IMG/VR virus record: IMGVR_UViG_3300036945_000716
Location: 1-23,769 of that record
Origin: a virus
Strand: one strand, 5' to 3'
DNA: 23,769 bases
Shown: one piece after another, positions 1,916 to 12,551 of the stretch
Numbering within the stretch: position 1 is the stretch's first letter
Layout: each line of letters starts with the position of its first letter
The notes under the pieces: generated by a model
Databases searched by the model: none
Seen by the model: only the letters and a program-made list of their open reading frames with translations
What the model was told of the DNA's origin: nothing
Made by a program: the position numbers and the translations under genes

Positions 1916-2035
1916 GGGGCGGTGGTAAAATGGTAAAGCACCCAGCATATGAAGCTGGGGGAAGAGGTTCGATTCCTCGAAGTAACGAAAGTTATGAGTA
2001 TGGTATTATTGTAGGTTCGAGTCCTACCTGCTCCA
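1916..2035 (+). tRNA. Irregular 120-nt tRNA with two T-type arms
   Basis: The ends pair as an acceptor stem with two wobbles (GGGGCGG 1916-1922 with CTGCTCC 2028-2034), next to a canonical T arm (GTAGG-TTCGAGT-CCTAC). A clean anticodon arm (CCCAGC-ATATGAA-GCTGGG, 1941-1959) would show anticodon ATG (His, CAU). Between it and the final T arm are about 50 extra bases: a second T-type arm (GAGG-TTCGATT-CCTC), a hairpin capped by GAAA (GTAAC/GTTAT, 1982-1995) and a D-loop-like stretch (ATGGTATT). The inner order T arm - capped stem - D arm is that of a permuted tRNA nested in a normal one. It could also be a fusion of two tRNA genes. Confidence 0.5.
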
Positions 2036-2071
2036 CAAAAGAGTTCATTGACATATTGGATAAAATTAAAA

Positions 2072-2471: not shown

Positions 2472-2535
2472 CGATAAGACTGTTACTAATTCATAGATCA
2501 CCGCCTAATAAGCACCGACGCATAGAATTAGATTT

Positions 2536-2606
2536 GCCCTCTAGGCTTTAAAGTGAAGCACGATACTTTTAATATCGGGAAGAAGGAGCATTACCTTCAG
2601 GGGGTA
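2536..2606 (+). tRNA. tRNA-Lys(UUU) with non-canonical elbow
   Basis: This is a full cloverleaf of 71 nt: acceptor GCCCTCT/AGGGGGT, D stem GCTT/AAGC, anticodon arm CGATA-CTTTTAA-TATCG (TTT) and T stem GAAGG/CCTTC. Its T loop is AGCATTA, not TTCRANN, and its D loop is TAAAGTG without the usual GG. The variable loop has only 4 nt. The loop changes A54...T58 for T54...A58 and keeps C56, so the elbow could still form in an altered way. It is the only Lys tRNA I can read. Lys-UUU is the target of the anticodon nuclease PrrC and other phage-defence tRNases. The 3' end is A-CA. Confidence 0.85.
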
Positions 2607-2611
2607 CAAAA

Positions 2612-2904: not shown

Positions 2905-2908
2905 CAAA

Positions 2909-3045
2909 CAAGGAAACACTCCAGAGTTGGTAAGCGCTTATCAGGACTCAAGAGAAGTAAAGTTACAGATGGGTGCGTAACGCCTTGGACTACTAAGAAT
3001 GAATGATACGAGCCTCCAAAGTTCGAAAGGAGTCAGGTAGTAGTC
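2909..3045 (+). ncRNA. Two closed RNA units between tRNA-Tyr and tRNA-Phe
   Basis: No gene is seen. Unit one (2909-2987) is closed by CAAGG/CCTTG and contains a GAGTTGGTAAGC D-loop-like stretch and a GTTAC/GTAAC hairpin with a 10-nt loop just before the closing strand. Unit two (2988-3045) is closed by GACTACT/AGTAGTC and holds a CTCC/GGAG hairpin whose loop contains GTTCGAA. Both look like tRNA relics or tRNA-like RNAs; the folds are by eye only. Confidence 0.3.
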
Positions 3046-3051
3046 AAAATT

Positions 3052-3124
3052 GGGTCTTTTGTATAGCTGGTGCGTATGCTAGTCTGAAGAACTAGAGGAG
3101 TAGGTTCGATTCCTACAGGACCCA
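3052..3124 (+). tRNA. tRNA-Phe(GAA)
   Basis: Acceptor GGGTCTT/AGGACCC, anticodon arm CTAGT-CTGAAGA-ACTAG (GAA) and T arm GTAGG-TTCGATT-CCTAC are regular. The discriminator A is followed by CT, and the next base starts the permuted element. Confidence 0.93.
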
Positions 3125-3126
3125 CT

Positions 3127-3204
3127 AAGAGGAGAGGCATGGGTTCGAATCCCATACTGTCCCAGATATGGGGCGGTTAGTATAACTGGCAGTAGCGCTC
3201 ACTT
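3127..3204 (+). tRNA. Candidate circularly permuted tRNA (3' half before 5' half)
   Basis: This 78-nt element fills exactly the gap between tRNA-Phe (plus its CT trailer) and tRNA-Asn. It reads: 3' anticodon side, T arm ATGGG-TTCGAAT-CCCAT (3139-3155), acceptor 3' strand ACTGTCC, a short loop (CAGATATG), acceptor 5' strand GGGCGGT, a D-loop-like AACTGGCAG, then a 5' anticodon side ending CTCACTT. The acceptor strands pair over 7-8 bp with two wobbles. Joining base 3204 to 3127 gives a tRNA-size molecule with anticodon loop CTTAAGA (TAA, Leu), but the anticodon stem then has only three normal pairs flanked by A-G mismatches. It may be a relic of a tandem duplication, the accepted origin of permuted tRNA genes. 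Confidence 0.5.
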
Positions 3205-3276
3205 GGACTGGTAGCTCAGAGGCAGAGCAAGAAGCTGTTAACTTCGAGGTCGGGATTTCGAAATTCCCTCAGTCCG
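3205..3276 (+). tRNA. tRNA-Asn(GUU)
   Basis: Acceptor GGACTGG/TCAGTCC, D arm GCTC-AGAGGCA-GAGC, anticodon loop CTGTTAA (GTT) in stem GAAG/CTTC, T loop TTCGAAA with a T-T mismatch at its closing pair. Discriminator G. Its 5' end abuts the permuted element with no spacer. Confidence 0.9.
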
Positions 3277-3281
3277 CGAGG

Positions 3282-3359
3282 ATGTTTAGTTTGGTAGTAT
3301 GTTTTTAAGGAGCCAAAGTGCCGTAAGGATTACTTGATGAGTAAAAAGGATAAACTATC
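3282..3359 (+). ncRNA. Closed RNA unit between tRNA-Asn and the Thr-like tRNA
   Basis: GATGTTTA (3282-3289) pairs with TAAACTATC (3351-3359) with one bulge and encloses a D-loop-like AGTTTGGTAGTAT and a TTACT/AGTAA hairpin. It has no recognisable T arm. Possibly a decayed tRNA. Confidence 0.25.
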
Positions 3360-3360
3360 A

Positions 3361-3468
3361 GTCAGAGTAGTTTAAAGAGCACTAACCAAGGGTTAATTCC
3401 GATGGTTAATGTTTTAGTAAAACGTAGGTCTATCCGAGTAGTTGTAGGTGCAAGTCCTACCTCTGACA
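3361..3468 (+). tRNA. Irregular 108-nt tRNA, anticodon AGU (Thr), with 28-nt insert
   Basis: Acceptor GTCAGAG/CTCTGAC is perfect and the T stem is GTAGG/CCTAC, with the unusual T loop TGCAAGT. A full anticodon arm, ATGTT-TTAGTAA-AACGT (3409-3425), has U33 and A37 and anticodon AGT (Thr). Between the D arm (GTTT-AAA-GAGC, 3370-3380) and this arm lie 28 extra bases (3381-3408) containing a TAACC/GGTTA hairpin. The 18-nt variable region is also long for Thr. The insert could be an intron at an odd place, an extra permanent arm, or a sign of decay. An A at position 34 is rare in bacteria outside Arg-ACG. Confidence 0.6.
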
Positions 3469-3473
3469 CAATT

Positions 3474-3763: not shown

Positions 3764-3833
3764 GCCGACTTGATCTAGTGATCGAGAATATCTCATAAGT
3801 ATTCTTAGACAAGAGCGTAACTTGTAGTCGGTA
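3764..3833 (+). tRNA. tRNA with CAU anticodon (Met or Ile2) and non-canonical elbow
   Basis: Acceptor GCCGACT/AGTCGGT, anticodon arm AATAT-CTCATAA-GTATT (CAT) and T stem ACAAG/CTTGT are clear. The T loop is AGCGTAA, identical to that of tRNA-Val. The variable loop has 4 nt (TTAG), and the D region contains TAGTG, like the AGTG of the Lys and His D loops. CAT could mean Met or, after lysidine modification, Ile(AUA). The 3' end is A-CA. Confidence 0.82.
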
Positions 3834-3839
3834 CAAAAA

Positions 3840-3903: not shown

Positions 3904-3975
3904 GGTGTTCGAAGCTTTTTAGTGAAGTGCAAGACTGTGAATCTTGAGAAGACGGGGCGGTACCGTCCTTACACC
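3904..3975 (+). tRNA. tRNA-His(GUG) with non-canonical elbow
   Basis: Anticodon arm CAAGA-CTGTGAA-TCTTG (GTG) and the His-specific extra pair G-1 (3904) with C73 (3975) fix the identity. The T arm is GACGG-GGCGGTA-CCGTC, the D arm GCTT-TTTAGTG-AAGT, and the variable loop has 4 nt, as in the Lys gene. The acceptor stem has pyrimidine mismatches (T-T and C-T) at its fifth and sixth pairs, which either lower stability or need editing. Confidence 0.82.
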
Positions 3976-4836: not shown

Positions 4837-4842
4837 CAAAAT

Positions 4843-4913
4843 GCGTTCCGCAGACAAGGTGTCGGTCAGGTCTCCAAAACCTCGACGGCTGGGTTCGATT
4901 CCTAGGGTTCGCG
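4843..4913 (+). tRNA. tRNA-Trp(CCA)
   Basis: Anticodon loop CTCCAAA (CCA) in stem AGGT/ACCT and T arm CTGGG-TTCGATT-CCTAG. The acceptor GCGTTCC/GGTTCGC contains two adjacent T-T mismatches (pairs 4 and 5). The D stem GACA/TGTC leaves only AGG as loop. Discriminator G followed by CA. Confidence 0.87.
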
Positions 4914-4919
4914 CAATAT

Positions 4920-5026
4920 CCTTCTGTAGTTTAACAAGAGCAAAACACAGAGACGAATACATCTCCCTCCGGTAACCAATCCAAGAATGTATTAAGAGTA
5001 TGTGGGTTCGATTCCCACTGGAAGGG
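4920..5026 (+). tRNA. Irregular 107-nt tRNA with a 24-nt anticodon-region loop
   Basis: Acceptor CCTTCTG/TGGAAGG (two wobbles), D arm GTTT-AACAA-GAGC like that of the Thr-type gene at 3361, and canonical T arm GTGGG-TTCGATT-CCCAC. The middle has a 7-bp stem AATACAT (4956-4962) with ATGTATT (4987-4993) closing a 24-nt loop, with 14 extra bases before it. No 7-nt anticodon loop can be named. If about 17 nt were removed from the loop, a normal anticodon arm would result. It is either intron-containing or decayed. Confidence 0.5.
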
Positions 5027-5041
5027 CAAAAATTATTAATT

Positions 5042-8672: not shown

Positions 8673-9584
8673 ATGAAAAATTTATTAGCATCAAAAGGGT
8701 TATCAATGTCTCAAGCACAATCAATCTCAAACTTGTGCAATCAAAGAGCAAAAGAAATTTCAACTCAATTAGACAACATCAACAATGTGTCTAAAGAATT
8801 GACTATTGGAGTTGAAAACTACACTGAAACTAAAGGAAACCCAATCCCAGGAAACGTAGTGGAGTTATTAACCGCTAAAGCAAGATTATCTGCTACTCAA
8901 GCATTTTTGATGGAGAACATCAAAGCCAAGGATGAATTGATTAACGAAATCAAACGTGAACACTTTATATACGATGTAGAAGCTCCGATCCGTCAACAAT
9001 CAATTTCAGAGAACCTTCCTTTAGAAGTAAGTGAAGAATTTGGATGGGATCAACTAACCCCAGCCGAATACAATGAGTATTTAGAAGCTGAAGCCTATGC
9101 TTCACATATCGGTCAGTTCATCCACAAAAGAGGAACTCTAGATCGATTAAGAGCAGAACTTCCTACCATTAAGACTTTAGAGTTTATGGAAATTGAAGTA
9201 GGAAAGAAAACTCCTCTTAAAGTAACCATCCACCATACTCCTGAGCAATTACTTGCAATTCATGAAGAGTTAGCAGCACTTCATAGAGGGTATGAGCAAA
9301 AAGTAAATTACTTTAAATCTAAAGTAAAAAATGCTACCACTTCTGAGAATGCTAGAATTCAGAAAGAGAGAGGTGAGATTCAAGCAAGAGTGAATCAACA
9401 AAATGCAGATCTAGCAAATGCTTATAAATTAGCATATGAGCAATGGACTGCAGATCAACGTAAGGCTCAACACGAGTTTGAAGAAAAACGTCAAGGTAAA
9501 ATTCAAGAAGCTGTTAACTTAAAAATTGACGTAGCAGGAAGATTCCAGGATGTAGTAGATGAGTTCTTAAATCAACTAAAATAA
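8673..9584 (+). CDS. Helical phage protein of unknown function (303 aa)
   Basis: This is a mostly helical, charged protein. Residues 1-100 form helices (QSISNLCNQRAKEISTQLDN...), a middle part (110-180) is less regular with acidic DVEAPIRQ and HIGQFIHKRGTLDRLRAEL, and residues 190-300 form long coiled-coil helices (EELAALHRGYEQKVNYFKSK; ENARIQKERGEIQARVN; QRKAQHEFEEKRQGKI). No catalytic motif, signal or membrane segment is present. Size and helical make-up would fit a scaffold, internal or nucleoid-associated protein. It has its own strong promoter, which implies good expression. Confidence 0.7.
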   Translation: MKNLLASKGLSMSQAQSISNLCNQRAKEISTQLDNINNVSKELTIGVENYTETKGNPIPGNVVELLTAKARLSATQAFLMENIKAKDELINEIKREHFIYDVEAPIRQQSISENLPLEVSEEFGWDQLTPAEYNEYLEAEAYASHIGQFIHKRGTLDRLRAELPTIKTLEFMEIEVGKKTPLKVTIHHTPEQLLAIHEELAALHRGYEQKVNYFKSKVKNATTSENARIQKERGEIQARVNQQNADLANAYKLAYEQWTADQRKAQHEFEEKRQGKIQEAVNLKIDVAGRFQDVVDEFLNQLK

Positions 9585-9585
9585 T

Positions 9586-9798
9586 ATGGCACAGTGTCAA
9601 TGTTGTAATAGAGATTTAGATCTAAGATTTGGGTTTTGCTTTGATTGTGCTGATGCAGAATCAATTATAGAAGAAGGAGTTGATATGTACAATAAGCCAA
9701 TTGATAAACAAGAAGGAATGAGTACATCAATGAGTAAAGTACAACATATCCTTAAAATGTATGATGTAGGTAATATTAATTTGGTGCCAAGGAGGTAA
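9586..9798 (+). CDS. Small zinc-finger protein (70 aa)
   Basis: The N terminus has two Cys pairs, CQCC (residues 4-7) and CFDC (18-21), separated by NRDLDLRFGF, as in a rubredoxin-like or treble-clef zinc ribbon. The rest is polar with a C-terminal KVQHILKMYDVG helix. It starts 2 bp after the stop of the 303-aa gene, so both are one operon. A regulatory or nucleic-acid-binding role is likely, not proven. Confidence 0.7.
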   Translation: MAQCQCCNRDLDLRFGFCFDCADAESIIEEGVDMYNKPIDKQEGMSTSMSKVQHILKMYDVGNINLVPRR

Positions 9799-11429: not shown

Positions 11430-12551
11430 ATGGAAAATCAAAATAGTGTTTGCTTTATAGCAAAAATAAACGAAGTAAAAGCAATCGAAGGTGCTGATAA
11501 CATCGAACAAGCAGTTATTGGTGGATGGAATTGTATTGTAAAAAAAGGATCACATAAAGTAAATGATCTAGTAGGAGTTGCAACAACAGATGCAGTTATC
11601 CCTCAAGGACTAGCAGATGCTATTGGAATTGCAAATTACCTGAGAAAAGGAAACAGAGTTAGAACTGTAAAACTAAGAGGAGTATATTCTGAATGCTTAA
11701 TAATCCCAGATCAATTTTTGCCTATTGGAATTAACTACGAAGGTAAGGATTTAATGGAGGCTTTAAAAATTTCTAAATACGAACCACCAGTTAAACAAAT
11801 TCAACTTGCTTCAGGTAGAAAAATCAAATGGAGAGACAATCAAAACTTCCACATCTACTACAAATTCCCAAACCTTAAAAACGTAGCAGGAATGTTTACT
11901 GAACAAGATGAAGTACAAATCACTAGAAAGATTCACGGTACAAATGCTAGATACGGTATTGTAAAGAAAAGTAAATTGTCATTTTGGGATAAAGTAAGAA
12001 AATTCTTTAGAATTGCTGATGCTTTAATTGACTATGAATACATTTATGGTTCACATAACTGTGAGAAAGGAAGTGACTCTCAAGGATTCTATTCAACTGA
12101 TGTTTGGAGAACAATTGCTGAAAAGTATGATATCAAAGCAAAGCTTTGGCAAGAAGCAAAACGTCAAGGTTCTGATTTAGGAGAAGGACTTATTCTTTAT
12201 GGAGAGATTTACGGAGCTGGTATTCAAAAGAACTACGAGTATGGTTTAACCGATATTCAGTTTGCAGCGTTCGATATTAAAATAAATGGAGAATATTTAC
12301 CAACAGAAGTAACTGAAGTTATAACTCAAGGTTTATTAGAACTTCCTCACGTAGAAGTACTTTACGAAGGAAAATGGAATCAACAAATTCAAGATAACTG
12401 GGTATTCAACAACTTCATTGAAGGAACAAAAGTACCACATGAAGGAATTGTAATCAAACATATCTCAGGTGAAAGACAGAAAGTAGCAAAGGTAATCAAT
12501 CCAGATTATTTGATCTACGGAGAGAAGAACGATGTAGGAGATTCTCACTAA
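11430..12551 (+). CDS. RNA ligase, DraRnl/Rnl5-like (373 aa)
   Basis: The protein has an N-terminal OB-like domain (residues 1-100: AKINEVKAIEGADNI, VKLRGVYSECLIIPD) followed by a nucleotidyltransferase domain. Motif I is K167-I-H-G-T-N, where the lysine takes AMP; motif III is LYGEIYG (about 257-262), motif IV EGIVIK (338-343) and motif V KVAKVINPDYL. An OB domain in front of the catalytic domain is typical of the Deinococcus DraRnl (DRB0094) family, which seals 3'-OH/5'-phosphate breaks in RNA, preferably in a duplex context. Together with the kinase and phosphoesterase it forms an RNA repair or splicing set, fitting with the giant tRNA array upstream. Confidence 0.9.
   Translation: MENQNSVCFIAKINEVKAIEGADNIEQAVIGGWNCIVKKGSHKVNDLVGVATTDAVIPQGLADAIGIANYLRKGNRVRTVKLRGVYSECLIIPDQFLPIGINYEGKDLMEALKISKYEPPVKQIQLASGRKIKWRDNQNFHIYYKFPNLKNVAGMFTEQDEVQITRKIHGTNARYGIVKKSKLSFWDKVRKFFRIADALIDYEYIYGSHNCEKGSDSQGFYSTDVWRTIAEKYDIKAKLWQEAKRQGSDLGEGLILYGEIYGAGIQKNYEYGLTDIQFAAFDIKINGEYLPTEVTEVITQGLLELPHVEVLYEGKWNQQIQDNWVFNNFIEGTKVPHEGIVIKHISGERQKVAKVINPDYLIYGEKNDVGDSH

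What the first reader, a model, noticed from the sequence alone, without database searches (positions are those of the whole stretch)
3127..3204. Likely circularly permuted tRNA gene filling the gap between tRNA-Phe and tRNA-Asn
Seen: T arm and acceptor 3' strand come first, then a short loop, the acceptor 5' strand and a D-loop region. The 78 bases fit exactly between the trailer of tRNA-Phe and base 1 of tRNA-Asn. Known: permuted tRNA genes occur in some algae and archaea and arise from tandem duplications; their precursors are circularised. Inference: RNase P cutting at tRNA-Asn and 3' processing of tRNA-Phe would free exactly this RNA, whose ends could be joined by the phage RNA ligase. 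The closed anticodon stem is weak, so it may be a relic.
Basis: partly seen in the sequence, partly recalled or inferred. Interest (0 to 1): 0.85.

Follow-up and report, generated by a model that had tools for sequence, protein, structure and literature searches.

The report
Permuted tRNA-mimic RNA in phage tRNA array
Between two transfer-RNA genes of a bacterial virus lies a small RNA that folds like a tRNA but in swapped order with its business end sealed; relatives show it is probably not a rearranged tRNA gene but a tRNA look-alike of the kind called bacterial Y RNA, here without the usual partner protein.

Summary
Bases 3126-3204, exactly between tRNA-Phe and tRNA-Asn, encode in order a T arm, an acceptor-like hairpin and a D arm. 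Homologues of the same order occur in at least eight further phage lineages. T-arm and acceptor pairs covary (10 of 16 modelled pairs changed on both sides; sliding the partners destroys it).

The reading as a circularised pre-tRNA is not supported. No relative yields a common anticodon, or consistently a 5-bp stem, 7-nt loop and U33. The acceptor is often extended and capped (9 bp with a GATA loop here; 11 bp in relatives). In four relatives the two ends pair over 11 bp.

This is the architecture of YrlA, the tRNA-mimicking bacterial Y RNA. Phage contigs found by this permuted signature often encode Ro60/TROVE (10 of 18; 0 of 7 controls), mostly within 3 kb on the same strand; three relatives of this phage do too.

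Best explanation: a minimal, orphan YrlA-like tRNA mimic, probably cut out of the tRNA-array transcript by maturation of its neighbours. Membership in YrlA proper is not shown: the Rfam score is far below cut-off, no Ro60 was found, and the basal stem is weak. Expression, function and circularity are untested.

The parts
3052..3125 (+). tRNA-Phe(GAA); its 3' maturation would give the 5' end of the element
   Evidence: ARAGORN, Rfam; processing inferred
3126..3204 (+). permuted tRNA-like RNA (YrlA-like tRNA mimic)
   Evidence: sequence; family alignment A1, pair counts, CM searches
3127..3134 (+). 5' strand of weak basal stem (AAG and GAG pair with 3202-3204 and 3198-3200)
   Evidence: fold; own-versus-swapped test
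3139..3155 (+). T arm ATGGG-TTCGAAT-CCCAT
   Evidence: sequence; covariation
3156..3177 (+). acceptor-like hairpin ACTGTCCCA-GATA-TGGGGCGGT, 9 bp, capped
   Evidence: sequence; covariation
3180..3195 (+). D-arm-like stretch GTAT-AACTGGCA-GTAG (3 pairs, conserved GG)
   Evidence: sequence
3197..3204 (+). 3' strand of basal stem, ends at base 1 of tRNA-Asn
3205..3277 (+). tRNA-Asn(GTT); RNase P cleavage at its base 1 would give the 3' end of the element
   Evidence: ARAGORN; processing inferred
11430..12551 (+). RNA ligase (possible player in the rival circularisation model)
   Evidence: PF09414 E 4.5e-19

Best explanation
It is a small non-coding RNA whose body copies the tRNA elbow (T arm, acceptor-type helix, D arm) in permuted order, like the tRNA-like module of bacterial Y RNA YrlA. 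The acceptor helix is closed by a hairpin loop, so there is no CCA end. The anticodon arm is replaced by a basal stem made of the RNA's own two ends. It is co-transcribed with the tRNA array; 3' processing of tRNA-Phe and RNase P cleavage of tRNA-Asn would release it as a linear RNA (inferred). It would then bind a protein that recognises the tRNA elbow, as a tether (as YrlA links Ro60 to PNPase) or as a decoy (inferred). Shown here: the anatomy, its covariation, its recurrence beside tRNA genes, and the link of the permuted architecture with phage Ro60. Not shown: expression, partner, function, or homology to YrlA by score.
For: Ten permuted members aligned: T arm 100% and acceptor 97% of cells paired, 10 of 16 pairs with two-sided change versus 4.9 expected, slid controls 30-52% paired. 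Elbow residues TTCGA and the D-loop GG are invariant. The acceptor hairpin is extended beyond 7 bp and capped in several relatives; L051, L155 and L036 fold unjoined into basal stem + T arm + capped acceptor + D arm. L155/L170/L171/L174 carry an 11-bp basal stem (10 of 11 pairs in L170 and L171). YrlA's consensus has the same order and the same acceptor/UAG motif: CcgGgcc..gcCcgGUAG versus CYGGNCC..GGNNCGGUAG; L171 matches RF02553 over its full length (24.6 bits) and L051 at 24.9 bits. Phage relatives L040, L050 and L054 carry a permuted YrlA-like element (28-34 bits) 1.7-2.0 kb from a TROVE gene. A pattern scan for the permuted signature led to contigs of which, with phage Phass-1, 10 of 18 encode TROVE versus 0 of 7 controls, mostly 0.15-3 kb away on the same strand. 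PMC8394870 describes YrlA as basal stem plus D, T and acceptor arms; PMC12282133 reports a Listeria phage with an Rsr-like protein and candidate Y RNAs near its tRNA genes.
Against: The window element scores only 16.4 bits with YrlA (gathering 69). Ordinary tandem tRNA junctions can score as high with YrlA or with the family model, so scores alone do not discriminate. No TROVE gene in the window, in its nearest contigs or in the 234-236 kb contigs of the L086 type. The basal stem of the window element is short and interrupted. No transcript data.
Confidence: 0.7

Rival explanations
1. [quoted passage not shown]
For: Permuted order, exact fit between two tRNAs, RNA ligase, kinase-like and HAD RNA-repair genes in the window. 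RNase P and tRNase Z cleavage would leave ligatable 3'-OH and 5'-P ends (general knowledge). Known in algae and an archaeon, with junctions often at 37/38 (PMC3978253).
Against: No common anticodon, U33 or 5-bp/7-nt arm across members. Capped, extended acceptor helices. An 11-bp end helix in four relatives. All 20 amino acids seem to be served by other tRNAs of the array (and reading by eye). No ordinary counterpart. No case in bacteria or phages found in the searched papers.
Confidence: 0.12
2. A functionless relic of a tandem tRNA duplication, kept by chance.
For: Weak basal stem; many relatives lack it and have 4-12 nt between Phe and Asn.
Against: Compensatory changes across lineages, loss or presence as a unit in the cases seen, recurrence at different tRNA junctions.
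Confidence: 0.1
3. A structured spacer that helps the flanking tRNAs fold or be processed, without a partner protein of its own.
For: In eight cases its 3' end touches base 1 of the next tRNA with no spacer.
Against: Other junctions in the same arrays work with 4-8 nt; conserved elbow residues point to protein recognition; L170/L171/L174 do not abut a downstream tRNA directly.
Confidence: 0.08

Closest known systems
YrlA, bacterial Y RNA (Rfam RF02553)
   Same: Order T arm, closed acceptor hairpin, UA, D arm; ends pair as basal stem; acceptor/UAG motif; occurs in phages
   Different: Minimal basal stem, no Ro60 found with it, lies inside a tRNA array flush with tRNA genes, far below the Rfam cut-off
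Circularly permuted tRNA genes of algae and Thermofilum (PMC3978253)
   Same: 3' half before 5' half, short intervening loop
   Different: No consistent anticodon loop, acceptor sealed by extended pairing, no BHB splicing machinery expected in a phage-infected bacterium
Permuted two-piece tmRNA (RF04321)
   Same: Acceptor 3' part precedes 5' part, joined by a loop
   Different: No tag-coding part; only 14.6 bits for L171

Membership tests
YrlA / bacterial Y RNA | tRNA-like module: T arm, closed acceptor hairpin, D arm in that order | tested here: met
YrlA / bacterial Y RNA | basal stem formed by the 5' and 3' ends, bound by Ro60 | tested here: inconclusive
   weak 3+3 bp in the window; 5-11 bp in relatives; own versus swapped 51/5040; Ro60 binding not testable
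YrlA / bacterial Y RNA | encoded near a Ro60 (TROVE) gene | tested here: not met
   none in the window or W-type contigs, though met for L040/L050/L054 and 10 of 18 other contigs
YrlA / bacterial Y RNA | Rfam RF02553 score over gathering cut-off | tested here: not met
   16.4 versus 69 bits
Circularly permuted tRNA gene | 3' half, intervening sequence, 5' half whose joined form is a complete cloverleaf with anticodon | tested here: not met
   halves present, but no canonical anticodon arm on joining
Circularly permuted tRNA gene | circular RNA intermediate and mature CCA-tailed tRNA | not testable with these tools
   needs RNA data
Permuted tmRNA | tag reading frame with resume codon | tested here: not met
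   no room: tRNA-Asn starts at 3205
Ordinary tRNA | recognised by ARAGORN or Rfam tRNA in genomic order | tested here: not met

The most novel reading that the evidence does not exclude
The first permuted tRNA gene in a virus or bacterium, matured by flanking-tRNA processing and circularised by a phage RNA ligase before use.
Probability: 0.1. Interest if true: 0.9.

Novelty: new variant of a known kind. Interest (0 to 1): 0.55.

Why it matters
It would extend Y RNA-like tRNA mimics to orphan forms set inside phage tRNA arrays, apparently freed by tRNA processing and without a phage Ro60. That makes testable what such mimics do: tether a ribonuclease, or act as decoys for tRNA-recognising host enzymes or defence nucleases. 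It also explains some spacers in phage tRNA arrays that tRNA finders leave blank, and warns that 'permuted tRNA' patterns may be Y RNAs.

Tried and rejected
Joining the two halves with ARAGORN gave shifting anticodons (Leu-TAA, Pyl-CTA, undetermined) depending on one-base trims, and enumeration over members gave no common solution. Nested-gene idea (halves of one tRNA around Phe or Asn) rejected because the two halves stay adjacent while the flanking tRNAs change (L031, L086, L155). Scanner hits L027 and L035/L038 are ordinary tandem Leu-like tRNAs; L040/L050/L054 first looked like that but proved YrlA-like beside TROVE. Searching the phage collection with the short element mostly hit ordinary tRNA T arms, except Phass-1. 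Leave-one-out model R2 found the window element at 42.5 bits, but an ordinary Arg-Arg junction scored 44.4, so this test does not discriminate. Single-sequence folding energy was not significant for the window element (z -1.7).

Full report
OBSERVATION. ARAGORN finds tRNA-Phe at 3052-3125 and tRNA-Asn at 3205-3277. The 79 bases between them read T arm (3139-3155), acceptor-like hairpin (3156-3177: ACTGTCCCA-GATA-TGGGGCGGT, 9 bp), TA, and a D-arm-like stretch with GG (3180-3195). Neither ARAGORN nor Rfam calls a tRNA there. Among 445 adjacent ordinary tRNA pairs of related phages only 3 show 7/7 complementarity between the 3' strand of one and the 5' strand of the next.

RELATIVES. One viral contig (L001) is the same species: 3470 bases compared with five differences, none in the array. 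About 157 related loci were fetched through two proteins of the window. Between Phe and Asn, relatives have either a 4-12 nt spacer, another structured RNA or other sequence, or the same permuted element (L024 group 76 nt; L036 83 nt). A scanner and pattern searches found further members: L031 and the L086 group between Tyr and Phe, L051 before Leu, L155 between Glu and Thr, L170/L171/L174 after a Leu-like tRNA. Where present, both halves are present and adjacent.

STRUCTURE. On a ten-member alignment, T-arm pairs hold in 100% and acceptor pairs in 97% of cells; 10 of 16 pairs change on both sides (shuffled mean 4.9, 0/500 as high) and sliding the partners drops pairing to 30-52%. RNAalifold predicts the same two helices on its own. 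TTCGA and the D-loop GG are invariant, so the tRNA elbow seems kept. The acceptor helix is capped and often longer than 7 bp (window 9, L036 9, L051 9, L155 and L171 11). L051, L155 and L036 fold as unjoined linear RNAs into basal stem, T arm, capped acceptor and D arm. The basal stem varies: 3+3 bp in the window, 5 bp in L051 and L036, 11 bp in L155 and L174 (10 of 11 in L170 and L171). Own-versus-swapped pairing of the two ends is modestly better than chance (51 of 5040 permutations).

NOT A tRNA. Joining the ends in every member with up to four or five bases trimmed gives no common anticodon and rarely a 5-bp stem with a 7-nt loop and U33. No ordinary tRNA isotype matches the rotated sequence. 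By ARAGORN, Rfam and reading by eye the array appears to serve all 20 amino acids without it.

WHAT IT IS LIKE. YrlA, the tRNA-mimicking bacterial Y RNA, has exactly this order; its Rfam consensus shares the acceptor and UAG motif. PMC8394870 describes YrlA as a large stem of 5' and 3' ends plus D, T and acceptor arms. L171 (24.6 bits, full length), L051 (24.9) and the window element (16.4, best in the window) match RF02553 below its cut-off of 69. Ordinary tandem junctions can reach 24 bits, so the score is supportive only. Stronger evidence is genomic. L040, L050 and L054, relatives of this phage, carry a permuted YrlA-like element 1.7-2.0 kb from a TROVE (Ro60) gene. A scan for the bare permuted signature led to contigs of which, counting phage Phass-1, 10 of 18 encode TROVE (8 over cut-off; two of the 18 pairs of contigs are near-duplicates), against 0 of 7 control contigs hit through ordinary tandem tRNAs. 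Comparing positions, eight of the ten lie 0.15-3.0 kb away on the same strand. A Listeria phage with an Rsr-like protein and candidate Y RNAs near its tRNA genes has been reported (PMC12282133). So this permutation is a mark of phage Y RNAs, and the window element looks like its minimal form without Ro60. No TROVE was found in W-type contigs, including three of 234-236 kb, nor in the complete genome of phage Phass-1, whose unannotated element abuts tRNA-Thr.

MECHANISM (inferred). The element is flush with tRNA-Asn and begins just after the discriminator of tRNA-Phe, so maturation of its neighbours would excise it as a linear RNA with 5'-P and 3'-OH ends. An RNA ligase, a kinase-like protein and a HAD RNA-repair protein are encoded in the window, so ligation cannot be excluded, but nothing in the sequence requires it. 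The conserved elbow with a sealed acceptor suggests that the RNA presents a tRNA elbow to a protein, as tether or decoy.

LIMITS. No expression data; the contig is a fragment; sequence models do not separate the window element from ordinary tRNA junctions, so the case rests on its anatomy, covariation and company.

Noticed in passing
window 2906-3050: Conserved structured RNA between Tyr and Phe, found again between Phe and Asn in L006 and L014; terminal stem changes with compensation (GACTACT/AGTAGTC versus GACTATTATG/CATAATAGTC), related core in L098 near 9545-9605.
   Followed up: partly
window 3349-3472 and 4915-5027: tRNA-like genes of about 110 nt with matching acceptor and T arms but an insert of 30-40 nt in the anticodon region, not recognised by tRNA finders; possible small introns or replaced anticodon arms.
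   Followed up: no
window 1916-2040: A tRNA-like unit with two T arms in a row (GAGGTTCGATTCCTC and GTAGGTTCGAGTCCTAC); weak Rfam tmRNA match.
   Followed up: no
L020 4752-4932, L004 6014-6190, L086 after 15230: About 170-nt conserved RNA beginning GTCCATAGTCAA and ending in a T arm plus TATGTGGCTC, inside the tRNA arrays of several relatives.
   Followed up: no
L040 9560-9900: Jumbo-phage region with at least two permuted tRNA-like RNAs that share repeated basal sequences (GTTACTTCGCATG, CATTCCCTTA) upstream of a TROVE gene.
   Followed up: partly
L086 13294-13398, L092 15566-15682: A second, stronger YrlA-like element (34-37 bits) with a basal stem AGGATGGTT/AACCATCCT in phages that also carry the W-type element; no TROVE in their contigs.
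   Followed up: partly
L150 and L151 contigs (G033, G034): TROVE proteins of 548 aa in 185-kb and 294-kb phage contigs related through the RNA ligase.
   Followed up: no
L215 (phage Phass-1, OQ749652) 890-973: Unannotated permuted element with an 8-bp acceptor hairpin capped by GATT, abutting tRNA-Thr in a complete gut phage genome.
   Followed up: partly
L155 899-1317: GOLLD RNA (292 bits) near the tRNA array of a phage that carries the permuted element.
   Followed up: no
window 2530-2610, 3765-3836, 3905-3975, 4842-4913: tRNA-like genes (Lys, Met, His, Trp by eye) missed by ARAGORN because of unusual T arms or mismatched acceptors.
   Followed up: no
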